A stretch of 64,000 bases of DNA. It comes from Klebsiella sp. RHBSTW-00484. GTDB lineage: Bacteria; Pseudomonadota; Gammaproteobacteria; Enterobacterales; Enterobacteriaceae. Under the pieces are notes generated by a model. It saw only the letters and a list, made by a program, of their open reading frames with translations. It made no database searches and had not been told where the DNA came from. The stretch lies in assembly GCF_013705725.1 (NCBI RefSeq), contig NZ_CP055481.1:3100001-3164000 (forward strand), given 5' to 3'. Shown one piece after another: positions 44,804-58,076 of this stretch. Both the position numbers and the translations under genes were made by a program. The stretch's first letter is position 1. Each line of letters opens with the position of its first letter.

Positions 44804-45754
44804 ATGAAAACAGTACCTTTTGGACGCACGGGGATTCAGGTCCCGGTGCTGGCGATGGGCGCGGCCTCGTTAGGCAGCATCTATCACCCGGTATCGCAAC
44901 AGCAGGCCAACGAAACCGTGGCGACGGCTCTCGCCCACGGCGTGAACTATTTCGATGTCGCTCCCTATTACGGGCTAACCAAAGCGGAAACCGCGCTGGG
45001 CATCGCGCTGAAAGGCGTACCGCGCGACAGCTATACCCTGGCGACGAAGGTCGGGCGCTACGGCGACAGCCTGTGGGATTTCTCCCGCGAGGCTACCCTA
45101 CGCAGCGTAGACGAAAGCCTGACCCGGTTAGGCTGTGATTACATCGACGTGATTCAGTGTCACGACATTGAATATGGCGACATGCAGCAATTACTCGATG
45201 AAGGATTGCCGACGCTGCGCGAACTGTGCGAGAGCGGCGTCGTGCGCCACGTTGGCATTACCGGCTACGACCTGGCGCTGCTGGAGCGCGTCGCCTGCGA
45301 GCAAAAAGTGGATAGCGTGATGGCCTACTGCACCTGGACCTTACAGGACAGGCGGCTGGGGGCAGTAGCGCAACGTTTGAATCAGGCGGGTATCGGCGTC
45401 CTCAACGCCTCACCGCTTTCGATGGGGCTGTTGACCCGAGGCGGCGCGCCCGACTGGCATCCGGCGCATCAGGATGTGCAGGCTATCTGCCGTAAAGTTT
45501 CTACATTGTGCGACAGCCACGGCGTAAATATTGCCCAGGTCGCCCTGCAATTTGCCCTCACCACCGCGGCGGATAACGGCATTGCCTCCACGGTGATCGG
45601 CACCGCCAGCGCCGACAATATGCTGGATAATATCCGCTGGTGTACGCAGCCGCTGGATCCGGAGCTGCTCGCGAAAATCGATGAATTAATGGCTCCGGTG
45701 CTGAATATTGGCTGGGACCTGCTGCCGGGCAACGGTGGGAAGGCGCAAAAATGA
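44804..45754 (+). CDS. Aldo/keto reductase (aldose 1-dehydrogenase-like)
   Basis: This 316-residue AKR has VNYFDVAPYYG (Asp/Tyr), YTLATKVG (Lys) and IDVIQCHDIEY (His), the four catalytic residues, and the cofactor loop SPLSMGLLTRGGAPDW. It resembles L-fucose/L-galactose 1-dehydrogenases of plants and pseudomonads (VLAMGAASLGSIY, DYIDVIQCHDIEYG). It would oxidise an aldose at C1 to the lactone that the next gene's product opens. Overlaps that gene by 4 bases. Confidence 0.9.
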   Translation: MKTVPFGRTGIQVPVLAMGAASLGSIYHPVSQQQANETVATALAHGVNYFDVAPYYGLTKAETALGIALKGVPRDSYTLATKVGRYGDSLWDFSREATLRSVDESLTRLGCDYIDVIQCHDIEYGDMQQLLDEGLPTLRELCESGVVRHVGITGYDLALLERVACEQKVDSVMAYCTWTLQDRRLGAVAQRLNQAGIGVLNASPLSMGLLTRGGAPDWHPAHQDVQAICRKVSTLCDSHGVNIAQVALQFALTTAADNGIASTVIGTASADNMLDNIRWCTQPLDPELLAKIDELMAPVLNIGWDLLPGNGGKAQK

Positions 45755-46620
45755 AGATCCTCGACAGCCATCTGCATCTCTGGGATCCGGGCGTGCTGCG
45801 CTACGACTGGCTGCGCGATCTCCCGGCGCTTAACCGGCCTTTTTTGCCTGCGCAGCTGGCCAAAGCCGCTCAATCGCCGGATGCCGCGATTGTGGTTCAG
45901 GCCGACTGCGCTGCGCAGCAGGCGCTTTTGGAGGTGGAGTGGATAAACAAGCAGGCGGAAACCAGCCCCATTGAGCTTGTCGGTATTGTCGCCTGGGCTC
46001 CGCTGGAAACGGGCAATGCCGTGGTGCCTTACCTGCGTCATTTACATGAACTACCGCGCGTGCTGGGTATTCGGCGCTCCTTGCAAAACGAGCCCCTGGA
46101 GCTGTTTTACAACACCGATTATCGCGACGGTTTACTGGCTGCCGCTCGTGAGGGTTTTGTGCTGGATATGTGCGTCAGGGCCTCTCAGCTGATTGCGCTT
46201 CACGATTTACTGACGTGGCTGTATCAACACGCACCTGATGCTCGCGTGGTGCTGGATCATATGGGGAAACCTGCTATCGCCGATAACCAGTGGCAGACCT
46301 GGCAGGAGACATTTATCGCGCTGGCCGCCTTTCCTCTGCTGGCGTGCAAAATATCCGGCTTACCGACGGAATCCGACTGGCAACGCTGGCAGCCGGAGCA
46401 GCTTCAGCCGTGGATCCAGCAGGCGATAACGGCATTTGGCCCGCAGCGCTGTTTATTCGGCGGCGACTGGCCGGTGGTCGAACTGGCTGGTGGCTACCCG
46501 CGCTGGAGAGCATGCGTGATGGCGGCGATTGCCCATTTATCGCCGGAGGATATTAACGCCGTCATGGGCGAAAACGCGCACCGTATATATCTGACGAAAT
46601 CAGAAGGGGGAAATAAATAA
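45751..46620 (+). CDS. Amidohydrolase-family lactonase (fuconolactonase-like)
   Basis: This 289-residue COG3618 hydrolase has DSHLHLWDPGVLRYDW (HxH metal site), ARVVLDHMGKPAI and FGGDWPVVE (Asp ligand). It opens the aldonolactone produced by the preceding reductase. It is related to the protein at 27784-28653, which carries SNFP at the last motif. The intact Asp here and tight coupling to the AKR support an active lactonase. Confidence 0.9.
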   Translation: MKILDSHLHLWDPGVLRYDWLRDLPALNRPFLPAQLAKAAQSPDAAIVVQADCAAQQALLEVEWINKQAETSPIELVGIVAWAPLETGNAVVPYLRHLHELPRVLGIRRSLQNEPLELFYNTDYRDGLLAAAREGFVLDMCVRASQLIALHDLLTWLYQHAPDARVVLDHMGKPAIADNQWQTWQETFIALAAFPLLACKISGLPTESDWQRWQPEQLQPWIQQAITAFGPQRCLFGGDWPVVELAGGYPRWRACVMAAIAHLSPEDINAVMGENAHRIYLTKSEGGNK

Positions 46621-46681
46621 AACCGGAGTTTATAACGTTTATTTTCAATTCACCCTACTGAATAATAATGAGGAAATAAGC

Positions 46682-47986
46682 ATGTCCGATAACATCAATT
46701 CATTGCCTGTCGGCAAGGTTGACGATAAACCTGATAGCGTATCGTCAGAAAATAACAACAGAGTCACGGGGCGTAAGAAAAATATCCTGCTGGCCTCGCT
46801 GTTTACCAATTTCTTTGTTCTGCTGGCGCTGTATTGCGGGGTTATCTCGGTTCTTCTCCCCAACCATGTGGCGCAAATCGATCCTGCCAATAAGGCTAAT
46901 AACCTGGCGATCGTGATGACCTCAGCGCTGCTGTTTACCATTTTTGCCCAGCCGATTGCCGGGGCGTTATCCGACCGCTGCCGCTCAACCTGGGGGCGTC
47001 GTTCACCGTTTATCGTTGGCGGCGCGTTAATCGGTGGGCTGGCTATCTTCGGCATTTCAATGACCACCACGATTGCCGGTATTGCGGTGTTCTGGTTGAT
47101 GGCTGCCGTCTCGCTTAATTGCATGAACGGTCCATTAGCCACCGTGATCGCCGACCGGTTCTTACCTGAAAATCGCGGTATCGCCTCCGGTTTCGTCGGC
47201 GCGGGCTCGACTGCCGGCGGTACGGTGGGGATTATCCTCGCAGGCTATCTGGCGTGGAACCTGCAACTGGGCTACCTGGTATTTGCGCTGGCGATTGCCG
47301 CCTGCTGCGTGGCTTTTGTCCTTATCAACCGCGAACCCTCTACCCGAAACATGGAAGTTGAACCCTTCCGCTGGGGCTCGTTCTTCAAAAACTTCTGGGT
47401 CAGTCCGCGTAAGTACCCGGATTTTGGCTGGGCGTTCTTTGGTCGCTTCGCCATGTATCTGGGCTACCAGGGGGTCGTAACCTATCAGCTGTATATTTTG
47501 CAGGATTTCATTGGCTTAAGCGTTGAGGAGTCTAACTACGCCATCGGCACTATCTCGGTGATCACCCTGGTGACGTTACTGTTCTCCGGCCTGGTTTCCG
47601 GCGTGCTCTCGGACAAACTGCAGCGGCGAAAAATCTTTGTCTTCCTTTCAACCCTGTTAATGGCCGCCGGTTTGTGTGTGCCTCTGTTTATGCCAACGCT
47701 TACCGGGATGTATATTTATGCCGCCATCATGGGGCTGGGTTATGGCGCTTATACCTCTATCGATATGGCGCTGATGACGCAGGTATTGCCCGGCGGCGGT
47801 AAACAAGCTGGTAAAGACATGGGCATTCTGACGATTGCGACCGTATTACCGCAATCTTTCAGCCCAATATTATCCGCCTGGCTGCTGGCGACCTTTAATA
47901 ATGATTATTCGTCGCTGTTTATTGCCGCCATTGTGTTTGTATTCGCATCATCATTTTTTGTATTACCGATTAAATCCGTTAAATAA
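46682..47986 (+). CDS. MFS sugar transporter
   Basis: This 434-residue 12-span transporter has a long soluble N-terminus (about 35 residues). The loop motif GALSDRCRSTWGRRSPFIVGG is characteristic of the glycoside/sucrose-type MFS branch, repeated after TM8 as SGVLSDKLQRRKIF. It is the only cytoplasmic-membrane sugar importer in the operon and so the probable uptake route for the operon's substrate, behind the outer-membrane porin encoded downstream. GAGGAAA precedes the ATG. Confidence 0.88.
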   Translation: MSDNINSLPVGKVDDKPDSVSSENNNRVTGRKKNILLASLFTNFFVLLALYCGVISVLLPNHVAQIDPANKANNLAIVMTSALLFTIFAQPIAGALSDRCRSTWGRRSPFIVGGALIGGLAIFGISMTTTIAGIAVFWLMAAVSLNCMNGPLATVIADRFLPENRGIASGFVGAGSTAGGTVGIILAGYLAWNLQLGYLVFALAIAACCVAFVLINREPSTRNMEVEPFRWGSFFKNFWVSPRKYPDFGWAFFGRFAMYLGYQGVVTYQLYILQDFIGLSVEESNYAIGTISVITLVTLLFSGLVSGVLSDKLQRRKIFVFLSTLLMAAGLCVPLFMPTLTGMYIYAAIMGLGYGAYTSIDMALMTQVLPGGGKQAGKDMGILTIATVLPQSFSPILSAWLLATFNNDYSSLFIAAIVFVFASSFFVLPIKSVK

Positions 47987-48000
47987 ATAACGCGTAGTTT

Positions 48001-48046
48001 GCAGGCGAGAACACACTCAGCGATGAGTGTGAAGGCCCTCGCCTGC
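48001..48046 (+). other. Large intercistronic hairpin
   Basis: Outer stem GCAGGCGAG (48001-48009) / CTCGCCTGC (48038-48046) encloses an inner stem CACACTCA (48012-48019) / TGAGTGTG (48024-48031) with a GCGA tetraloop. There is no T-run, and it lies in the 94-bp gap between transporter and aldolase genes. It probably protects or balances the polycistronic mRNA. Confidence 0.6.
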
Positions 48047-48080
48047 GCCTGGTACAGGAATACGCGACAGGAGAATTATA

Positions 48081-49007
48081 ATGACTCAGCCTATTTTTCG
48101 CGGGGTGATCCCCCCGGTTCCGACGTTATTTACCGCGCAGGGAGAATTTGATCAACCCGCACAAGCGCGCTTAATTGAACACCTGCTGGCCTCCCCGGTC
48201 GACGGCCTGTTCTTCCTCGGTAGCGCGGGGGAATTTGCTCATATGTCCGATGCCCAGCGGCGGCAAGTCACGGAATTTTGCATTACCACGGTCGCCGGGA
48301 GAAAACCGGTGCTGATCGGTATCGCCAGCTGTGGGACTCAGCAGACGATTGCGGCTGGCGAACATGCGCGACTGGCGGGAGCCGACGGCGTCGTGGTAGT
48401 CAATCCCTGGTACAACCCTCTGAGCGAAAGCAACCTGCTGCGCCACTTCACCACCATTGCTAACGCTCTGCCGCTGCCGATTATTCTCTATAATTTCCCG
48501 GCGCTGACCGGTCAGTCAATTCCACCATCGGTTATCAAAACGCTGGCGCAGAACTGCCCGAATATCGTGGGATTGAAAGATACCGTTGATACACTCTCGC
48601 ATATCCGGGAAACCCTGCATGCGGTCAAACCGCTGCGCCCGGATTTCGCGGTATTCGCCGGTTATGACGAATATCTACTGGGCACCCTGATCCTCGGCGG
48701 CGACGGCTGTATCCCGGCCAGCGCCAACTTTGCGCCACAGCTCACCTGCGGAATACTCGCAGCCTGGCAGCGTCAGGATTTTGCCGAAGCGGTCGCCCTA
48801 CAGCAGTCTCTTTCCTGGGTCCCGCCGCTCTACAGCATTGACGTGCCGTTTTATAACGCTGTGAAATATGCCCTACAGCTGACCGGTCTGGATATTCCCG
48901 TTTATTCCCTGCCTCCCGCATCCCCATTAACGGAAGAGATGAAAGTCGATATTAAACAGATTCTGCAACGTGCCCACGTTATTAATAAGGATGACAACGA
49001 TGAGTAA
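48081..49007 (+). CDS. Dihydrodipicolinate synthase/KDG-aldolase family protein
   Basis: This is a 308-residue TIM-barrel aldolase with Tyr137 (IILYNFPALTG) and Schiff-base Lys166 (GLKDTVDTL). It is a close paralogue of 26833-27735, sharing GRKPVLIGI, VNPWYNPL and the FAVFxGYDEYL stretch. It should cleave the 2-keto-3-deoxy acid formed by the enolase-superfamily dehydratase to pyruvate and an aldehyde, the last step of a non-phosphorylating aldose pathway. Confidence 0.9.
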   Translation: MTQPIFRGVIPPVPTLFTAQGEFDQPAQARLIEHLLASPVDGLFFLGSAGEFAHMSDAQRRQVTEFCITTVAGRKPVLIGIASCGTQQTIAAGEHARLAGADGVVVVNPWYNPLSESNLLRHFTTIANALPLPIILYNFPALTGQSIPPSVIKTLAQNCPNIVGLKDTVDTLSHIRETLHAVKPLRPDFAVFAGYDEYLLGTLILGGDGCIPASANFAPQLTCGILAAWQRQDFAEAVALQQSLSWVPPLYSIDVPFYNAVKYALQLTGLDIPVYSLPPASPLTEEMKVDIKQILQRAHVINKDDNDE

Positions 49008-49332
49008 AATTCGCCGCTTCGGCTGTGTGGTTAAAGTCCGCCCGGAAAAACTGGATTATTATAAAGAGCTGCATGCTAATCCCTGGCCGGAAGTCAACGC
49101 CATTATTAAAGAGTGCAACCTACGCAACTTCTCAATTTATTATAAAAACGGATTGTTATTTAGCTATCTGGAGTATGTTGGCGATAACTATGAAGCCGAT
49201 CAAGAAAAAATGGCCGCACATTTAAAAACCCAGCAGTGGTGGCGAGAAACTGGCCCATGCCAGATGCCTCTGGACGGTGAGCCGGAAGGTACGCTGTGGG
49301 TCGAGATGGAAGAAGTTTACCACTTAGATTAG
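49000..49332 (+). CDS. L-rhamnose mutarotase (RhaM) family protein
   Basis: This 110-residue RhaM-fold mutarotase has RRFGCVVKVRPEKLDYYKELH, NFSIYYKNGLLFSYLEY and MEEVYHLD, paralogous to 26481-26813. ATG 49000 (MSKIRRF) overlaps the aldolase end by 8 bases. Mutarotation supplies the anomer used by the AKR dehydrogenase, which points to a 6-deoxy- or related aldose. Confidence 0.88.
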   Translation: MSKIRRFGCVVKVRPEKLDYYKELHANPWPEVNAIIKECNLRNFSIYYKNGLLFSYLEYVGDNYEADQEKMAAHLKTQQWWRETGPCQMPLDGEPEGTLWVEMEEVYHLD

Positions 49333-49355
49333 TAGAAAGATAAATAACAACCTCT

Positions 49356-50943
<1,588 letters not shown>

Positions 50944-50949
50944 TCGCAG

Positions 50950-50977
50950 CGAACGGCTTCCCTGGCGAAGCCGTTCG
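50950..50977. terminator. Bidirectional hairpin between porin and AraC genes
   Basis: An 11-bp perfect stem CGAACGGCTTC (50950-50960) / GAAGCCGTTCG (50967-50977) with a 6-base loop fills the 37-bp gap between convergent stops. T-runs are weak on both sides. Confidence 0.65.
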
Positions 50978-50980
50978 TAT

Positions 50981-51853
50981 TCACGCGCCATCCGAAAGCT
51001 GTTTTTCCTGACGGCGAAATTCACTTGGCGAAACGCCTACCGCGCGATGAAAGTCGCGCGAGAAATGCAGCGGATCGTTATAACCCACCTGCCCGGCAAT
51101 TTTGCTAATTGTGTCATCAGTTTCGACCAATAACCGCCGGGCCTGAGACAGACGATAATTTTTCAGCCATTTTAACGGGCTTTGATTAAAGGTCTCCTGA
51201 AACAGGCGAAATAGCTGCGATTTACTCACCTGGCAGTACTGCATAAATTTTTCAATATCCCACTCGTCATTATAGTGGCTGTGGATCTGATATATAAGCC
51301 GCCCCAGGCCGCGATGGGTAATAACCGGGGATTTCTCCGTTTCCTGGCTGCGGTTCTCCAGCAAGGTAAAAATAAGTTTTGCGCACAGCGCATCGCAGTG
51401 CGCGTCTGAAACCAGAGTATGGCTTTTCATTAAACTGAACAGTTGATAATAAATTTCAGTCACTTTCTCCGGTTGCTGGAAGGCAAATACGGGTTCCTGA
51501 AGAACATTAAGAATCTGCATGATATTATTTAATTTTGAGCTATCAATTCTCAGCCATAATATTTCCCACGGTTCAGCGCTATCAGGATAATGTTCATGCG
51601 GCCAACGTACCGGTAGCCAGGCCAGATTTCCTTCCTGCACATGATGCAGATTATTTTCCAGTCGAATAACCCCACGCCCTTTAAGGCAAAATATAAGTTC
51701 ATGCCCGACAACCGACTGACGTTGAATATGGAAATTGCCGTTTGTCCGGATATGGCCCGCCCTGAGAACCCGATAATTCACCAGCGTCGAAAAATCATCG
51801 GACTCGCGATACCAGTTTTCGATGACCTGCGTTCGCTGCACGAGTGATGTCAT
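50981..51853 (-). CDS. AraC-family transcriptional regulator
   Basis: This 290-residue regulator has an N-terminal cupin-like sugar-sensing domain (VVGHELIFCLKGRGVIRLENNLHHVQEGNLAWLPVRWPHEHYP). The C-terminal double helix-turn-helix (WDIEKFMQYCQVSKSQLFRLFQETFNQSPLKWLKNYRLSQARRLLVETDDTISKIAGQVGYNDPLHFSRDFHRAVGVSPSEFRRQ) is complete. It lies convergent to the 40.4-50.9 kb sugar operon and is its likely activator. Confidence 0.92.
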   Translation of the reverse strand: MTSLVQRTQVIENWYRESDDFSTLVNYRVLRAGHIRTNGNFHIQRQSVVGHELIFCLKGRGVIRLENNLHHVQEGNLAWLPVRWPHEHYPDSAEPWEILWLRIDSSKLNNIMQILNVLQEPVFAFQQPEKVTEIYYQLFSLMKSHTLVSDAHCDALCAKLIFTLLENRSQETEKSPVITHRGLGRLIYQIHSHYNDEWDIEKFMQYCQVSKSQLFRLFQETFNQSPLKWLKNYRLSQARRLLVETDDTISKIAGQVGYNDPLHFSRDFHRAVGVSPSEFRRQEKQLSDGA

Positions 51854-52030
51854 ATGCCACTCCCCAAATAATCAATATTCATCAAGTCTATGGATATCTA
51901 TCGTGACACGGTATGTGGTCATTCAGGCAGGTTGTATTATGGATTTTTGAGCTATCTCACAACAAAGCGTTCAGGAAATTCAACGCTGCTGTTTTGAGTA
52001 AAAAAAGCAGTATTGTTGAGTTCAGGCATA

Positions 52031-52122
52031 GAGCCCCGGCTCGCGCTGCGCTTAGCCGGGCTACTGGTTCGAAGTCGTATACGGTTTGCGTAGGTCGGGT
52101 AAGGCGCAGGCCGCCACCCGAC
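52031..52122. repeat. REP-type palindromic units
   Basis: Two REP-like units: GAGCCCCGGCTCGCGCTGCG onward to GGGCTAC (52031-52064), and GTAGGTCGGGTAAGGCGCAG to ACCCGAC (52090-52122). They occupy the 316-bp gap (51854-52169) between the AraC gene and the transposase-derived gene. I see nothing else there. Confidence 0.7.
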
Positions 52123-52169
52123 AAAAATGCGCACACAATACCTAACAAATTTGCCATCAGCCTCAGCAC

Positions 52170-52991
52170 TTACCTCTGCCCCAGCGACTCAAGAAACGCC
52201 TGCGGCGTCATATCGCCCAGCTTTTTTTGTGTCCGCCCCTGGTTCCACAGCGCGCAGAGACGCTGGAGAGTCGCATCGGGTTCATCCAGTGCCGGGATAA
52301 CGTCGGCTAATCTTTCACTCAGCTGCACCGCCCCAACCTCTTGTGCCGCTACCGCTCTACACAACAGCCCCGCGCTGGAAGGATGAAAGCCTTTTTGTAC
52401 GTAAGTCTCAAGACATTGTATCTTAGCCGGACAGGCTTCCAGCACCTGCTCCAGCCAGCTATCAACCAGCGCGGGCGAAATCCCGCAATAGATGCGGCCA
52501 AAGCACCAGCCGCTAATCGGCTCCTGCGCCCACAGCAGATGATGCTCGCCGCCGTCGTCCATTGAGAGCGCCACCAGGCGGTAATGGAGCATCAGCGTAT
52601 CCGCACGTAACCCAGCCTTTAATGCCTTCTTTCCCTGCGGCGCGGCATTCTTTCGCCCTTTATGCGCCGGATGCAGATAACGGTTCAGCGTTGCTCGGGA
52701 AATGGCGATCCCCAGTCCTTCATTAACCATAAACAGCAACTCGTCCAGCGGCGCACGAAGGACGTCACGCAGCGTGTTAATCAATGCCTCTTGTTCTTGT
52801 CTCAGAACTTTGTGTATTAAATGCGGCGTAGTGTGATTATCAGAAATCTGGCTGCGGTTACGCCAGCGGCGAACGGTGGTGATGGATATCCCCAGTTCCT
52901 GCGCCAGTTCCCGGTCACTTTTATCCGATTCCTGGAGATATTTGCGCGTTCTTGGCGTGGTAGTGGCGTTGGCGTGCAGCTTGATTTCCAT
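52170..52991 (-). CDS. Domesticated IS481-type transposase, probable regulator
   Basis: This 273-residue protein has an N-terminal helix-turn-helix, SDRELAQELGISITTVRRWRNR (residues 25-46). Its body matches IS481 transposases in order: ISRATLNRYLHPAHKGRK, then LEQVLEACPAKIQCLETYVQKGF where transposases read LAACPFKIQKILTDNGKEF. The catalytic LHIDIKKL segment appears as TLMLHYRLVAL and DNG as TYV, so at least two of three DDE acids are lost. No IS ends flank it. It lies divergent from a PTS operon, so I infer a DNA-binding regulator derived from a transposase. Confidence 0.8.
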   Translation of the reverse strand: MEIKLHANATTTPRTRKYLQESDKSDRELAQELGISITTVRRWRNRSQISDNHTTPHLIHKVLRQEQEALINTLRDVLRAPLDELLFMVNEGLGIAISRATLNRYLHPAHKGRKNAAPQGKKALKAGLRADTLMLHYRLVALSMDDGGEHHLLWAQEPISGWCFGRIYCGISPALVDSWLEQVLEACPAKIQCLETYVQKGFHPSSAGLLCRAVAAQEVGAVQLSERLADVIPALDEPDATLQRLCALWNQGRTQKKLGDMTPQAFLESLGQR

Positions 52992-53053
52992 TCATTCCCC
53001 TACAAGAAAACATAACCAATCATATGAGATATATATTATTGCAGAGAATACAA

Positions 53054-53069
53054 TGTGAACCGCTTCACC
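53054..53069. promoter_or_regulatory. CRP site candidate before the PTS IIC operon
   Basis: TGTGA-ACCGCT-TCACC matches the CRP consensus TGTGA-N6-TCACA at all but the last base. It sits in the divergent gap 52992-53146, about 80 bases before the PTS gene; a (CA)n run follows at 53109-53121. Catabolite control of the operon is implied. Confidence 0.72.
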
Positions 53070-53146
53070 TTTCAGGCCACCGCTTTCTCTCATAATCCGT
53101 CATAGATAACACACACACACCCTGTCGATCTTGTACGGAGTTCACA

Positions 53147-54466
53147 ATGAACAATGTTCTGGGATTTCTTGAAGCTAAATTGATGCCTCTGGCGGCGAAA
53201 ACCGCCCAGCAGCGTCACCTTGGTGCTATCCGCGGCGCCTACGTTTCATTCATGCCTTTTATTATTGTCGGTTCAATTTTGCTGGTGATTTCGTCATTCC
53301 CCAATCAGGCGTATCAGCAATTTATGGCCAGCACCTTCGGTGCCAGCTGGAGCGCGATTATCGAGATCCCGTTTAACGCGGTCTTCTCAACCATGTCACT
53401 GTTTATCAGCTTCCTGGTAGCCTACCGCCTGGCAGAACACTACGGCGATGACCGTATCTCCTGCGGCATCCTCTCGCTGGTAGGTTTTCTTATTCTGACG
53501 CCGTTTATCAAGGTGGCAGAAAACGGCGGCATCACGGTGATCCCGGTGGAATGGATTGGTACCAAAGGATTATTCGTCGCCATGATCGGTTCGCTTCTGT
53601 GGACCGAGCTCTTCTGCTGGTTAAAGCGTAAGAAACTGGTGATTAAGATGCCGGAAGGCGTTCCGCCTGCGGTACAGGAATCTTTCGCCGCGCTGATCCC
53701 GGCGCTGCTGGTGATGATTCTGATCCTGGCGATTCGTATCGGGTTTGAGCATACCCACTACGTAACCATCCATCAGTTTATTTATGAGGTCGTCGCCTCG
53801 CCGGTGCGTCACTACGGCACCTCCTATTTTGGTGCGCTGATGACCGTCTTCAGCATCACCATTCTGTGGTCGGTCGGCATCAACTCCGGTTCAATGATTA
53901 ACGGCATCATTCGTCCGCTGTGGATGGAAAACCAGACCGATAACATCGCCGCCATTCAGGCTGGTGTGACGCCTCCGCACATCATTACCGAACAGTTCTT
54001 CGATATGATCTGGATGGGCGGCGCGGGCGCGACGCTATCGCTGGTGATTGCGATGCTGATTTTCGCCCGCAGCAAAAATATGCGCGAAGTCGCCCGCCTC
54101 GGCGCAGGTGCCTCAATCTTTAATATCAACGAACCGATTCTCTTCGGTCTGCCGGTGATCATGAATCCGATCATGCTGATCCCGTTTAACCTGGTGCCTT
54201 TGGTGCTGGTGACGGTGCAGTACGCGGCGATGAAAATCGGTGCGGTGGCAGTGACTACCGGGGTCTTTATTCCGTGGACCCTGCCGCCGGTCATCAGCGG
54301 TTTTATCGTCACCGGGCATCTCAGCGGTAGCATCATGCAACTGCTTAATCTGTTGATTGGCGCGATGCTGTACCTGCCTTTCATGCGCATCGTCGATAAG
54401 CAGTATCGCGCGGCGGAAATCACCGCCCGCGCCGAAACGGACAACACGCTTGCTAAACAGGAGTAA
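53147..54466 (+). CDS. PTS system lactose/cellobiose-family IIC component
   Basis: This 439-residue inner-membrane channel of the Lac/Chb PTS family has an N-terminal GFLEAKLMPLAAKTAQQRHLGAIRGAYVSFMPFIIVGSILLVI, mid-protein ITILWSVGINSGSMINGIIRP (conserved His in the family replaced by the surrounding Ser/Asn set) and FNINEPILFGLPVIMNPIMLIPF, the substrate-binding NEP motif. No IIA or IIB lies nearby, so soluble partners must come from elsewhere. It heads an operon with a glycosylasparaginase and an aminopeptidase. GTACGGAG lies upstream of the start. Confidence 0.9.
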   Translation: MNNVLGFLEAKLMPLAAKTAQQRHLGAIRGAYVSFMPFIIVGSILLVISSFPNQAYQQFMASTFGASWSAIIEIPFNAVFSTMSLFISFLVAYRLAEHYGDDRISCGILSLVGFLILTPFIKVAENGGITVIPVEWIGTKGLFVAMIGSLLWTELFCWLKRKKLVIKMPEGVPPAVQESFAALIPALLVMILILAIRIGFEHTHYVTIHQFIYEVVASPVRHYGTSYFGALMTVFSITILWSVGINSGSMINGIIRPLWMENQTDNIAAIQAGVTPPHIITEQFFDMIWMGGAGATLSLVIAMLIFARSKNMREVARLGAGASIFNINEPILFGLPVIMNPIMLIPFNLVPLVLVTVQYAAMKIGAVAVTTGVFIPWTLPPVISGFIVTGHLSGSIMQLLNLLIGAMLYLPFMRIVDKQYRAAEITARAETDNTLAKQE

Positions 54467-54470
54467 ACCA

Positions 54471-55424
54471 ATGTGGGGAATTATTGCCACCTGGCGAATG
54501 GCGCTGGAAGGGGTAACGGAATCCGCTGCGGCGCTGGCCGCCGGGGCTGACACCTCTACCGCCGTAGTGAATGCGGTAGCCGCAGTCGAAGATTTTCCGC
54601 TGTACAAATCAGTAGGCTATGGCGGCTTACCAACGGAAAACGGCGAGGTCGAGCTGGACGCCGCCTATATGAACGGCGACACCCTGGCGTTCGGCGCGGT
54701 TGGCAATCTGGTGGACATCGCCAATCCGGTCAAGGTGGCTCACGCCCTGAGCCGCCAGCGATACAACAGCCTGCTGGTCGGTCAGGGCGCCCGTGAGTGG
54801 GCGCTGAGTCAGGGATTCGCCGCTAAAGAGATGCTGACCGAGCGGGCGCTGCAGCACTATCGCAAACGCTGCCGCGAAACGCTGGATAAAGGCCTCAGTC
54901 CCTACGATGGCCACGACACCGTAGGCATTATCGGCCTCGATAAACAAGGTTCCATGAGCGTCGCAACGTCAACCAGCGGCCTGTTTATGAAAAAACGCGG
55001 GCGGCTGGGCGACTCGCCGATTATTGGTTCCGGCTTCTATTGCGATAGCGAAACCGGGGCCGCTACGGCGACCGGCGTCGGTGAAGATCTGATGAAGGGC
55101 TGTACCAGCTACGAGATCGTGCGGCGAATGGCTCAGGGGATGACCCCGCAGCAGGCAGCAGATTCAGTGGTGTGCGAACTGGAAGACAAGCTGATGTCGC
55201 GCTTTGGTCGCGCGGGGGATCTTTCGGTGGTCTGCATGAACCGCCGCGGCGAATTCGGCGCGGCGACCAATATCAAAACCTTCTCTTTTGTGATCGCCAG
55301 CGCGACGCAGCCGCTCACCGTGTTTTGCGCCGAGCGCGTGCAGGAGAAAACCCATTATCGTCCGGTGGACGACGAATGGATGCAGGCCTACGCCGCACGC
55401 ATTCGCGCCCCCATCGAGGAGTAA
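54471..55424 (+). CDS. Glycosylasparaginase (N4-(beta-GlcNAc)-Asn-ase) family
   Basis: This 317-residue Ntn hydrolase is made as a precursor that cleaves itself before the catalytic Thr. GHDTVGIIGL places that residue at Thr150; the HDT tripeptide is diagnostic of glycosylasparaginase, as against the GTVGAV of isoaspartyl peptidases. Further matches to the animal enzyme are GRLGDSPIIGSGFYCDSETGAATATGVGEDLM and SYEIVRRMAQGMTPQQA. It has no signal peptide, so it works in the cytoplasm and would split glycosyl-Asn taken up by the PTS. ATG 54471 follows AGGAG by seven bases. Confidence 0.87.
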   Translation: MWGIIATWRMALEGVTESAAALAAGADTSTAVVNAVAAVEDFPLYKSVGYGGLPTENGEVELDAAYMNGDTLAFGAVGNLVDIANPVKVAHALSRQRYNSLLVGQGAREWALSQGFAAKEMLTERALQHYRKRCRETLDKGLSPYDGHDTVGIIGLDKQGSMSVATSTSGLFMKKRGRLGDSPIIGSGFYCDSETGAATATGVGEDLMKGCTSYEIVRRMAQGMTPQQAADSVVCELEDKLMSRFGRAGDLSVVCMNRRGEFGAATNIKTFSFVIASATQPLTVFCAERVQEKTHYRPVDDEWMQAYAARIRAPIEE

Positions 55425-55427
55425 GTT

Positions 55428-56885
55428 ATGTTGGATTATCGTTTCATTAACCATCTGGATAGCACCTGCAATGGCGCACATCTGGTGACCTGGCCCGGCA
55501 GTACGCTGTTAGCGCAATCCCCCCACAACGCCAGCCCCCTGCTCGCCGAAATGGTTGAGCAGGCCGCGCGCGGCGAAGTGGCGGATGCCCGCTTTGGCTG
55601 CTCGCCTTTCGCCCGCATTACGCTTATCCCGCAGTCGCTGTGGCAGGACTCGCTTAACGATAGCCTGATCGAGACGCTGCGCCCGTTGTTCAAAGCGCCG
55701 GTAAGCGATGCGCTGGTTTTTGATTGCTCGCCGGGAGAAGCACATGGGGCGATGGGCAAAGCGCTGCGCTATTTATTCAATCTCGACTGGCAGCTTGATG
55801 ATTTAGGTCTGCATCAGGTGAAGACCGTCAGGCCCCGCCTGCGCCAGCTCGCGCTTTACGCGTTGCCAGCACAACAAGCGGCGCTGGAAACGCTGGCTTA
55901 TCAGCAGCAGGCCACCGCGCACGGTATGCTCGCCGCACGACGGTTAGCGGACCTCCCTTCCGAGCAGTGCACGCCGCAGTATGTCGTAGAAGAAGCCCAG
56001 CGTCTGTGCGCGGACATTCCTTCTCTACGCTGCGAGATGCTGGATGAGCGGGCGATTATTGACCAGGGGCTCGGGCTGCTGCATGCGGTAGGAAAAGGTT
56101 CTGAGCGCCCGCCGCGCTTGCTGGCGATTCATTATGATGGCATCACCGATGGCCCGGTTCGCTGCTACGTCGGTAAAGGCGTGACCTTTGATACCGGCGG
56201 ACTGTGGCTGAAGGAAGGCGCCGGGATGTATACCATGAAGTATGACATGTGCGGCGCGGCCAACGTGCTCGGCCTGATGCTGAGCATCGCGAAGCTTGCG
56301 CTGCCGGTGCGGGTGATGGGCGTGCTGGCGCTGGCGGAAAACGCCATTGGCCCTAACGCCATGCAGCCCGGCAGCGTCGCGCGCGCCTGTAACGGCTTAA
56401 CGGTTGAGATCAACAATACCGATGCCGAGGGTCGTCTGGTGCTGTCCGACGCCATCGCCTGGGCCAGCCAGCGGCATCCGCAGGCGCGCTATATTATCGA
56501 TATGGCAACGCTGACCGGCGCGGTGGTGAAAGCGCTGGGTTATGACCTCAGTGGTTTAATGACTCAAAACGAAACCCTGCGATCGGCGTTGACTCAGGCG
56601 GGAATAGAGAGCGGAGATGAAGTCTGGTCACTGCCGCTGGACAGTCGGCTGAAGAAACAGACCGAAAGCGCGATTGCCGATCTTTGCAATACGCCGGGCA
56701 ACAACGCGGCAATCAGTGCCTCCGCCGCCTGGCTGTTGCAGCATTTCTGTCCGCCGGAAATCCCGTGGGCCCACCTCGACGTCAGCGGCACGGCGCTGTG
56801 GCGCGAAGGCGGCAAGAGCGTGGCCTCCGGCAGGCCAATACCGCTGCTGATCCAGCATCTGCTCAACGATATCAGCCATGTTTAA
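55428..56885 (+). CDS. M17 leucyl aminopeptidase family protein
   Basis: This 485-residue cytosolic metallopeptidase has the M17 signature NNTDAEGRLVLSDAI (catalytic Arg region). Metal sites lie in GKGVTFDTGGLWLKEG (Lys and Asp) and TMKYDMCGAANVLG (Lys, Asp). It would trim peptides, releasing amino acids, possibly from glycopeptides after asparaginase action, or from Asn/Asp dipeptides. Three bases separate it from the preceding gene, so all three genes form one unit. Confidence 0.9.
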   Translation: MLDYRFINHLDSTCNGAHLVTWPGSTLLAQSPHNASPLLAEMVEQAARGEVADARFGCSPFARITLIPQSLWQDSLNDSLIETLRPLFKAPVSDALVFDCSPGEAHGAMGKALRYLFNLDWQLDDLGLHQVKTVRPRLRQLALYALPAQQAALETLAYQQQATAHGMLAARRLADLPSEQCTPQYVVEEAQRLCADIPSLRCEMLDERAIIDQGLGLLHAVGKGSERPPRLLAIHYDGITDGPVRCYVGKGVTFDTGGLWLKEGAGMYTMKYDMCGAANVLGLMLSIAKLALPVRVMGVLALAENAIGPNAMQPGSVARACNGLTVEINNTDAEGRLVLSDAIAWASQRHPQARYIIDMATLTGAVVKALGYDLSGLMTQNETLRSALTQAGIESGDEVWSLPLDSRLKKQTESAIADLCNTPGNNAAISASAAWLLQHFCPPEIPWAHLDVSGTALWREGGKSVASGRPIPLLIQHLLNDISHV

Positions 56886-56891
56886 AACCTT

Positions 56892-56968
56892 CCCGGGACG
56901 GCGCGTTGCGCCTTGCCCGGGCTACCAAACAACAAACTCGCACGATGCACCTGCCATAAAGTAGCCCG
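56892..56968. repeat. REP unit, split by the IS110-family element
   Basis: CCCGGGACGGCGCGTTGCGC continues to GGGCTAC (56892-56925); a second unit starts GTAGCCCG (56961-56968) and is resumed after the insertion as GGACAGGTGCGCCAGC at 58357. The joined sequence matches GTAGCCCGGACAGATGCGC at 34500-34518. Confidence 0.8.
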
Positions 56969-57053
56969 ATGTGATGGACACCTCCCACCTTACGGCATCA
57001 TAACGTGCCAGACTGGAAGTGTTACCTGCAGTCCACAGGAGGAGGTGTCCACC

Positions 57054-58076
57054 ATGAATATTAAACGTATCGGTCTTGACCTGGCAAAAAATGTCTTTCA
57101 GATCCATGCCGTGGATCACCATGAGCATGTCGTCGTACGAAAATCTATTCGCCGCGCCCACATGCACGCTTATTTCTCTCAGCTGGCTCCCTGCACCATC
57201 GGGATTGAAGCCTGCGCATCATCCCACTACTGGTCCCGCGAACTCACCCGCATGGGGCATACCGTGCGCATTATTCCCCCGAAATTCGTCAAGCCTTACC
57301 TCAAAGGCAACAAGAATGATGCCAACGATGCCGAAGCCATCTGTGAAGCCATCAGCCGCCCCGCCATGCGCTTCGTCGCGGTTAAGACAGAGCGCCAGCA
57401 GACCCTTCAGGCGGAGCATCGCGTGCGGGCCAGAGTGATAAAAAGCCGCACGGCGCTGTGCAACGAGATACGGGGCTTTCTGGGCGAATTCGGCGTGGTG
57501 CTGCCGGTCGGCATCAGCCAGTTGCGTAAGGCGCTGCCGGAGATACTGTCACAGCAGGAGCAGTGGGATGACCGGTTTATGCGCCTGCTGTGCGAGCTGG
57601 CCGAAGAGCTGCGGATGCTGGATGACCGGGTGGCGGGGCATGACCGGCGGCTCGCAGAGGCGGCGCGGGAAGATATCTGCATCCAGCGGCTGATGAAAAT
57701 AGAAGGTATCGGCGTGATAACCGCCAGCGCGATGGTGGCGTTGTTGGGTGACGCGACGCAGTTTAAGAACGGTCGGGAGATGGCGGCTTATGTGGGGCTG
57801 GTTCCCCGGCAGCACTCAAGCGGCGGTAAGCAGCAGCTGGGGCATATCAGCAAGCGGGGTGACAGCTACCTGCGTACGCTGGTCATCCACGGGGCACGGT
57901 CAGTTCTGAAGACATGTGCAGGCAAAGAAGACCGGCGGAGCCAGTGGCTGCAGTCGGTGGCGGAAAGACGGAACCGGAATATCGCGACGGTGGCGCTGGC
58001 GAACAAGAATGTGCGGATAGCGTGGGCGGTGCTGAGTCGCGGAGAAGATTACCATGGTTCACGGGTCGCCGGTTAA
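57054..58076 (+). CDS. IS110-family transposase (IS1111 group)
   Basis: This 340-residue DEDD recombinase has an N-terminal RuvC-like half: Asp9 (IGLDLAKNVF), Glu in IGIEACASSHYW and Asp/Asp in NKNDANDAEAI. The C-terminal transposase-20 half includes IEGIGVITASAMVALLGDATQFKNGREMAAYVGLVPRQHSSGGKQQLGHISKRGDSYLRTLVIHGA with its serine. ATG 57054 (MNIKRIG) is the family start. Intact, so the element may be active. Confidence 0.93.
   Translation: MNIKRIGLDLAKNVFQIHAVDHHEHVVVRKSIRRAHMHAYFSQLAPCTIGIEACASSHYWSRELTRMGHTVRIIPPKFVKPYLKGNKNDANDAEAICEAISRPAMRFVAVKTERQQTLQAEHRVRARVIKSRTALCNEIRGFLGEFGVVLPVGISQLRKALPEILSQQEQWDDRFMRLLCELAEELRMLDDRVAGHDRRLAEAAREDICIQRLMKIEGIGVITASAMVALLGDATQFKNGREMAAYVGLVPRQHSSGGKQQLGHISKRGDSYLRTLVIHGARSVLKTCAGKEDRRSQWLQSVAERRNRNIATVALANKNVRIAWAVLSRGEDYHGSRVAG

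What the first reader, a model, noticed from the sequence alone, without database searches (positions are those of the whole stretch)
53147..56885. PTS channel, glycosylasparaginase and M17 peptidase: glycoasparagine salvage
The HDT motif and GRLGDSPI region identify a glycosylasparaginase, an enzyme known from lysosomes and a few bacteria, here in the cytoplasm and coupled to a Chb-type channel and a peptidase. The set predicts import of GlcNAc-Asn or small glycopeptides (from N-glycoprotein breakdown in hosts) and their use as carbon and nitrogen.
Basis: partly seen in the sequence, partly recalled or inferred. Interest (0 to 1): 0.8.

Follow-up and report, generated by a model that had tools for sequence, protein, structure and literature searches.

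The report
Enteric glycoasparagine-eating PTS operon
A three-gene operon in a Klebsiella-like bacterium probably imports and cuts GlcNAc-asparagine, the stump left when host N-glycoproteins are digested; it looks like an enteric variant of a pathway already named in Enterococcus, with a transporter part supplied from elsewhere and a switch that resembles a tamed transposase.

Summary
Confirmed: three tightly packed genes fill 53147-56885: a lactose/cellobiose-family EIIC, a glycosylasparaginase-type Ntn hydrolase (AGA) and an M17 aminopeptidase. AGA, this EIIC and an integrase-like gene beside them occur together in the same 25 of 246 family genomes. ChbA/ChbB are not the general partner (ChbB ortholog in 8 of 25). 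A better candidate is an orphan EIIB-EIIA pair 2.8 Mb away, found in 22 of 25; the other 3 carry EIIB-EIIA inside the operon. That rests on co-occurrence only: sequence similarity does not single the pair out, and its EIIB also occurs in 30 of 221 genomes without AGA. New here: 71 of 71 AGA-linked EIICs compared carry Asn where 47 of 49 other lac-family EIICs carry His; the divergent gene models as an integrase fold with a seemingly broken triad and is probably the dedicated regulator; the promoter has a conserved CRP-like site at -41.5 and an operator-like motif. Substrate, phosphorylation, partner and regulation are inferred, not shown.

The parts
52170..52991 (-). Divergent integrase-like HTH protein (273 aa), probable dedicated regulator
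53018..53030 (.). Operator-like motif AATCNNRTGAGAY
   Evidence: 50 of 53 intergenic stretches against 4 of 26500 single-letter shuffles
53054..53069 (+). CRP-like site TGTGA-N6-TCACC
   Evidence: 9 of 10 consensus letters in 48 of 53 stretches; about 0.4% of single-letter shuffles reach 9 or more
53091..53096 (+). -10-like hexamer CATAAT; puts the CRP-like centre at -41.5
   Evidence: spacing kept in 52 of 53 stretches; in L035 the script picked another site of equal score
53147..54466 (+). Lactose/cellobiose-family PTS EIIC without EIIA/EIIB in cis; Asn246 where bcChbC has His250
54471..55424 (+). Glycosylasparaginase-type Ntn hydrolase, 317 aa, nucleophile Thr150; no signal peptide by eye
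55428..56885 (+). M17 leucyl-aminopeptidase-family metallopeptidase
   Evidence: Pfam 344.4 bits; nearest solved 8pz0, 3.8e-85

Best explanation
A PTS-coupled glycoasparagine salvage operon. Inferred path: EIIC, fed by an EIIB-EIIA pair encoded elsewhere (best candidate G000:C1:5914113-5914712), imports GlcNAc-Asn and phosphorylates the sugar; the cytoplasmic AGA matures by cutting itself before Thr150 and splits the sugar-Asn amide, giving aspartate and an amino-sugar that decays to GlcNAc-6-P and ammonia, for the nag pathway and nitrogen metabolism. The M17 peptidase trims residues so that Asn has the free amino group AGA needs. The integrase-like protein binds the AATCNNRTGAGAY motif and, with cAMP-CRP, controls the operon. 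Shown: gene content, co-occurrence, conserved residues and sites. Inferred: substrate, phosphorylation, partner pair, peptidase role, regulation.
For: AGA is nearest to Elizabethkingia glycosylasparaginase (1p4k 1.6e-54; the next kind starts at 4o47 8.4e-35 and 4et0 1.5e-33); the modelled fold agrees (4r4y 9.5e-29; best isoaspartyl/asparaginase type 7.6e-24). EmAGA W11, T152, G172, R180, D183, G204, G206 (PMC13204146 section 19) are kept in 87 of 87 loci. AGA, EIIC and regulator share the same 25 of 246 genomes. Orphan-type EIIB (85% or more) and EIIA (86% or more) in 22 of the 25; cis EIIB-EIIA in the other 3. In L055, taken as the example, AGA stands with EIIA, EIIB, EIIC and an M20 dipeptidase, and many kin loci share these clusters. 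Asn in 71 of 71 AGA-linked EIICs, His in 47 of 49 others, in two groups parted by a supported branch. Precedents: ega; L. casei AsnA2 active on GlcNAc-Asn (PMC6960285 section 13).
Against: No activity, transport or growth data. The orphan-type EIIB is also in 30 of 221 AGA-negative genomes, in 4 of these near an EIIC of its own; the own genome has two other EIICs without an EIIA nearby, so the pair may serve others. Similarity does not pick it out: Providencia cis EIIB scores 99.8 bits to the orphan and 95.9 to the full-length 1459-type EIIB (the 84.3 came from a cut piece); G019 cis EIIB is nearest the 1459-type (98.2 against 97.4); cis EIIA is nearest a cel-type EIIA (98.2 against 97.1). No operator-like motif at the pair. 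EmAGA E48, T64, T169, Q254 are Tyr, Glu, Ser, Ser here. L. casei needed no PepV. 10 of 87 AGA loci show no EIIC in the stretch held. Nag genes were not looked for.
Confidence: 0.67

Rival explanations
1. Same pathway, but EIIC borrows EIIA/EIIB from ChbA/ChbB, a 1459-type or cel-type pair, or several pairs at will.
For: The own genome has ChbA, ChbB and three more lac-type EIIAs besides the orphan; a further EIIA, 44-48% identical to the orphan EIIA, is listed in 24 of 25 AGA genomes; similarity does not separate the candidates.
Against: ChbB ortholog in only 8 of 25; in 9 of 25 the orphan EIIB is the only match to ChbB at E<=1e-20. ChbB is further from the Providencia cis EIIB (82.8 bits) than the orphan (99.8) or 1459-type (95.9).
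Confidence: 0.3
2. The Ntn enzyme is an isoaspartyl (beta-aspartyl) peptidase and the set scavenges damaged peptides.
For: Same Pfam family; a peptidase follows; some partial relatives are named isoaspartyl peptidase; four EmAGA residues differ.
Against: NF007589 beta-aspartyl-peptidase 112.8 bits against a cut-off of 567; a second PF01112 gene at 4020380 scores 379.1 bits and is the likelier IaaA (inference); a sugar PTS channel does not fit peptides; residue, sequence and fold evidence favours AGA.
Confidence: 0.08
3. The substrate is another Asn-linked sugar: chitobiosyl-Asn, glucosyl-Asn, or an Amadori sugar-asparagine.
For: EIIC and AGA sequences do not fix the sugar.
Against: AGA-type residues and the ega and alf-2 precedents point to GlcNAc-Asn. 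Amadori use (fra locus, recalled) needs a deglycase; none is among the ten proteins annotated around the operon.
Confidence: 0.13
4. The integrase-like gene is a conserved neighbour or relic, not the regulator.
For: No DNA-binding data; in 3 of 25 genomes (G019, G071, G192) it lies past the M17 end of the operon.
Against: Found in 25 of 25 AGA genomes and, weakly, 1 of 221 others; near-invariant HTH; conserved motif in the shared intergenic stretch.
Confidence: 0.2

Closest known systems
Enterococcus faecalis ega (glycosylasparaginase) locus
   Same: Glycosylasparaginase with lac/cellobiose-family EIIC and a peptidase; by its title (seen only in reference lists) used for GlcNAc-Asn
   Different: ega has EIIB in cis, GntR regulator, dipeptidase and an oxidoreductase pseudogene (passage of PMC11160706); here no EIIB/EIIA in cis, an M17 peptidase and an integrase-like divergent gene
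Lactobacillus casei alf-2 cluster
   Same: Cytoplasmic glycosylasparaginase AsnA2 and a linked peptidase; a glycoamino acid as food (PMC6960285)
   Different: MFS permease, fucosidase and sugar kinase, no PTS
Firmicute AGA clusters (L055, L066 and kin)
   Same: AGA 53-61% identical and lac-family EIIC with the same Asn
   Different: L055: EIIA, EIIB, PRD regulator, GrdB-like, M20 dipeptidase and CutC in cis; Lactococcus L071 and L078, like the window, show EIIC without EIIA/EIIB among the ORFs called beside it
ChbBCA diacetylchitobiose PTS (bcChbC 3qnq)
   Same: EIIC family, 45% identity to bcChbC, kept NE glutamate
   Different: His at the aligned site replaced by Asn; ChbC equivalog cut-off not met
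IS481/IS21-type transposases
   Same: HTH plus integrase-like core
   Different: Below the IS481 cut-off (48.9 against 224 bits), triad apparently broken, tied to one operon

Membership tests
Glycosylasparaginase (AGA) | HDT self-cleavage site with Thr nucleophile | tested here: met
   His148-Asp149-Thr150 in 87 of 87 loci
Glycosylasparaginase (AGA) | EmAGA residues W11, G172, R180, D183, G204, G206 | tested here: met
   W8, G170, R178, D181, G202, G204 in 87 of 87 loci
Glycosylasparaginase (AGA) | EmAGA E48, T64, T169, Q254 | tested here: not met
   Y45, E61, S167, S252 in 87 of 87 loci; mutants of E48 and T64 kept 54% and 40% activity and Q254 is called not highly conserved, so I do not treat these as defining
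Glycosylasparaginase (AGA) | Activity on GlcNAc-Asn | not testable with these tools
   needs an assay
Isoaspartyl peptidase (IaaA) | NCBIfam NF007589 cut-off | tested here: not met
   112.8 bits against 567
Lac/cellobiose EIIC (TIGR00410) | curated cut-off | tested here: met
   435 against 236 bits
ChbC equivalog (NF007634) | curated cut-off | tested here: not met
   217.8 against 760 bits
E. faecalis ega locus type | AGA next to lac-family EIIC | tested here: met
E. faecalis ega locus type | EIIB in cis, GntR regulator, dipeptidase | tested here: not met
   none among the ten proteins annotated from 46682 to 58076; it works like ega but is not organised like it
L. casei alf-2 type | MFS AlfH, fucosidase AlfC, kinase SugK in the cluster | tested here: not met
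   none beside the operon; the MFS gene at 46682 lies in another gene set
IS481 transposase | NF033577 cut-off and intact DDE triad | tested here: not met
   48.9 against 224 bits; first Asp in 2 of 25 rows, which have Thr at column 195; triad columns were assigned by eye
Peptidase M17 | PF00883 catalytic domain | tested here: met
   344.4 bits, positions 3-309 of 310

The most novel reading that the evidence does not exclude
A split PTS: a lone EIIC with a recurrent His-to-Asn change in its sugar site draws on a distant orphan EIIB-EIIA to bring in GlcNAc-6-P-Asn, which the AGA hydrolyses in phosphorylated form, under a dead integrase turned into a glycoasparagine-responsive regulator.
Probability: 0.32. 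Interest if true: 0.72.

Novelty: new variant of a known kind. Interest (0 to 1): 0.5.

Why it matters
It would extend glycoasparagine feeding, known from Enterococcus and Lactobacillus, to the Klebsiella oxytoca group, Enterobacter, Citrobacter, Kluyvera, Lelliottia and Providencia (named loci). The Asn/His difference, if causal, gives a one-residue test for finding glycoasparagine channels among 'cellobiose' EIICs. A tamed integrase as the regulator of a catabolic operon would be an unusual regulator type.

Tried and rejected
ChbA/ChbB as the general partner: rejected. Sequence similarity as proof of the orphan pair: rejected on recheck; one search had compared one own EIIB as a 92-residue piece, and at full length the gap is 99.8 against 95.9 bits. 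A 6-phosphate pocket read from PTS linkage: R9, K119, R125 and R133 are invariant in EIIC-linked AGAs and absent from EmAGA, but the 10 loci without EIIC share them too, save one R9K, so linkage cannot assign them. A second operator in the genome: the nearest match (2881414, one mismatch) lies past the end of an MFS-like gene and was taken as chance; the backwards control gave 13 sites against 29. Operator-like motif near the orphan pair: none. E. coli: no megablast match in 20,395 records. Sigma-70 consensus scan: no site in 52992-53146. PDB sequence search with the regulator profile: no hit at E<=0.1; the fold search did find integrases. Role of bcChbC His250: one search listed no paper on it in the ten rows shown, so it is recalled. 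The EgaG sequence was not obtained; one search listed other enterococci.

In print: searches (25 of 86 listed) listed no paper on this operon in enterobacteria; the library lacks most subscription journals, and the ega paper is not held.
Full report
Observation. The three genes are intact and at the stated coordinates. Gaps of 4 and 3 bases suggest one transcript. The genome is 6.94 Mb in 28 contigs, the window being C1:3100001-3164000; the nearest named loci are Klebsiella of the oxytoca group (AGA 95-97% identical: L003, L004, L005, L048).

Enzyme. Among solved structures the 317-aa AGA is nearest to Elizabethkingia/Flavobacterium glycosylasparaginase (1.6e-54); asparaginase and isoaspartyl types follow from 8.4e-35. 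The model (pLDDT 86.5) ranks 4r4y first. Of the residues listed for EmAGA in PMC13204146 (passages and section 19 seen), seven are kept in 87 of 87 loci and four differ. In 77 an EIIC was found in the stretch (8.6 kb away in L060), in 10 none. The family is large: 5174 homologues at E<=0.001 among 7995 candidates scored.

Transporter. EIIC is lac/cellobiose family, 45% identical to bcChbC, with no EIIA or EIIB in the operon. Of 246 family genomes, 25 have the AGA and the same 25 the EIIC. Of these 25, 22 carry an EIIB (85% identity or more) and EIIA (86% or more) like the own genome's pair, which sits between thi genes and rpoC by eye. The other three (G126, G171, G228) carry EIIB-EIIA in the operon (the EIIA of G171). 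G019 has the pair and a cis EIIB too. Providencia L046 has cis EIIB-EIIA. ChbB at 80% or more is in 8 of 25.

Against the orphan pair: its EIIB is in 52 of 246 genomes in all, 30 of them without AGA. In 4 of those 30 (G056, G061, G183, G186) an EIIC and a GH4-like gene (named by eye) lie in the same stretch; in the other 26 no EIIC at E<=1e-50 lies near it's list. The own genome has further EIICs without an EIIA nearby at 1215134 and 5294700. Similarity of cis to trans proteins does not decide: the orphan EIIB leads for three of four cis EIIBs by 2.3 to 6.9 bits over the 1459-type and trails by 0.8 in G019; a cel-type EIIA leads the orphan EIIA by about 1 bit for both cis EIIAs tried. So the link rests on presence and absence alone, among related genomes whose counts are not independent. 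The pair may be older than the partnership and shared.

Sugar site. bcChbC His250 (its place near the substrate is recalled, not read) aligns with Asn246. Asn stands in 71 of 71 AGA-linked EIICs compared, enteric and Firmicute-type (loci whose EIIC ORF was not 380-520 aa long were not in; L060 is counted). Controls: His in 47 of 49 other lac-family EIICs, namely seven of the own genome, two beside the orphan pair, and 40 picked by hand over a range of scores; all are enteric and many are orthologs of each other. The two exceptions are the own EIIC at 3971688 and one in G183. On a tree of 30 EIICs a 95/95 branch joins the Firmicute AGA-linked set with His-bearing EIICs and leaves out the enteric set, so the change arose twice or reverted; long branches make the deep order unsure.

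Promoter. Of 56 sequences tried, 53 gave a divergent intergenic stretch (not L117, L118, L119, where the gene lies elsewhere). A CRP-like TGTGA-N6-TCACC scores 9 of 10 in 48 of 53, 8 in four and 7 in one; about 0.4% of shuffles reach 9. Its centre lies at -41.5 from a -10-like hexamer in 52 of 53, the class II CRP spacing (recalled); for L046, L114 and L116 I set the site by the alignment. AATCNNRTGAGAY is in 50 of 53, not in L038, L042, L052. Relatedness inflates these counts, though the motif is kept in L046, whose regulator is 45% identical.

Peptidase. M17 here and M20 in Firmicute loci suggest two recruitments for one job. [quoted passage not shown] casei did without PepV.

Known systems. 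alf-2 shows the enzyme step with an MFS permease. The ega locus has AGA, EIIB, EIIC, an oxidoreductase pseudogene, GntR and a dipeptidase (passage of PMC11160706); of the ega paper I saw only the title in reference lists. So the kind is known. The enteric form differs by its missing EIIA/EIIB, its M17 gene and its integrase-like partner; Lactococcus L071 and L078 also show EIIC without EIIA/EIIB beside it.

Verdict. Core pathway 0.67; orphan pair as partner about 0.5; regulator about 0.7; hydrolysis of the phosphorylated form about 0.6. All are inferences from sequence.

Noticed in passing
45751-51853: Neighbouring set: amidohydrolase-like gene, MFS, DHDPS-family gene, RhaM-like mutarotase, LamB-type porin and AraC-type regulator, possibly an L-sugar operon; L004 (K. 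spallanzanii) has a similar arrangement by gene size.
   Followed up: partly
57054-58076: IS110-family transposase just past the M17 stop; a near-identical N-terminus lies at L111:161-1192, so it is a repeated element and does not cut the operon.
   Followed up: partly
L055:9441-13686, L066:13632-14825: AGA clusters that also hold a GrdB-like protein without Sec, CutC, YitT (L055) and MupG (L066); CutC next to AGA may hint at a sugar role for a supposed copper protein.
   Followed up: no
L123, L124, L125, L126: The orphan EIIB-EIIA site carries an extra EIIC and a GH4-like gene in four genomes without AGA.
   Followed up: partly
L122:7002-8321 (G134): The AGA-linked EIIC is interrupted by one in-frame stop in this genome.
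   Followed up: no
L129:6042-8868; L130:6159-7502: Two more own-genome lac-family EIICs without EIIA nearby; the first is next to a gene that looks like GH1 by eye.
   Followed up: partly
L049: Record labelled Chryseobacterium carries an enterobacterial operon (AGA 89% identical); probably mislabelled or contaminated.
   Followed up: no
L058: A record labelled as an alphaproteobacterial MAG carries an EIIC that groups with the Firmicute AGA-linked ones: transfer or misbinning.
   Followed up: no
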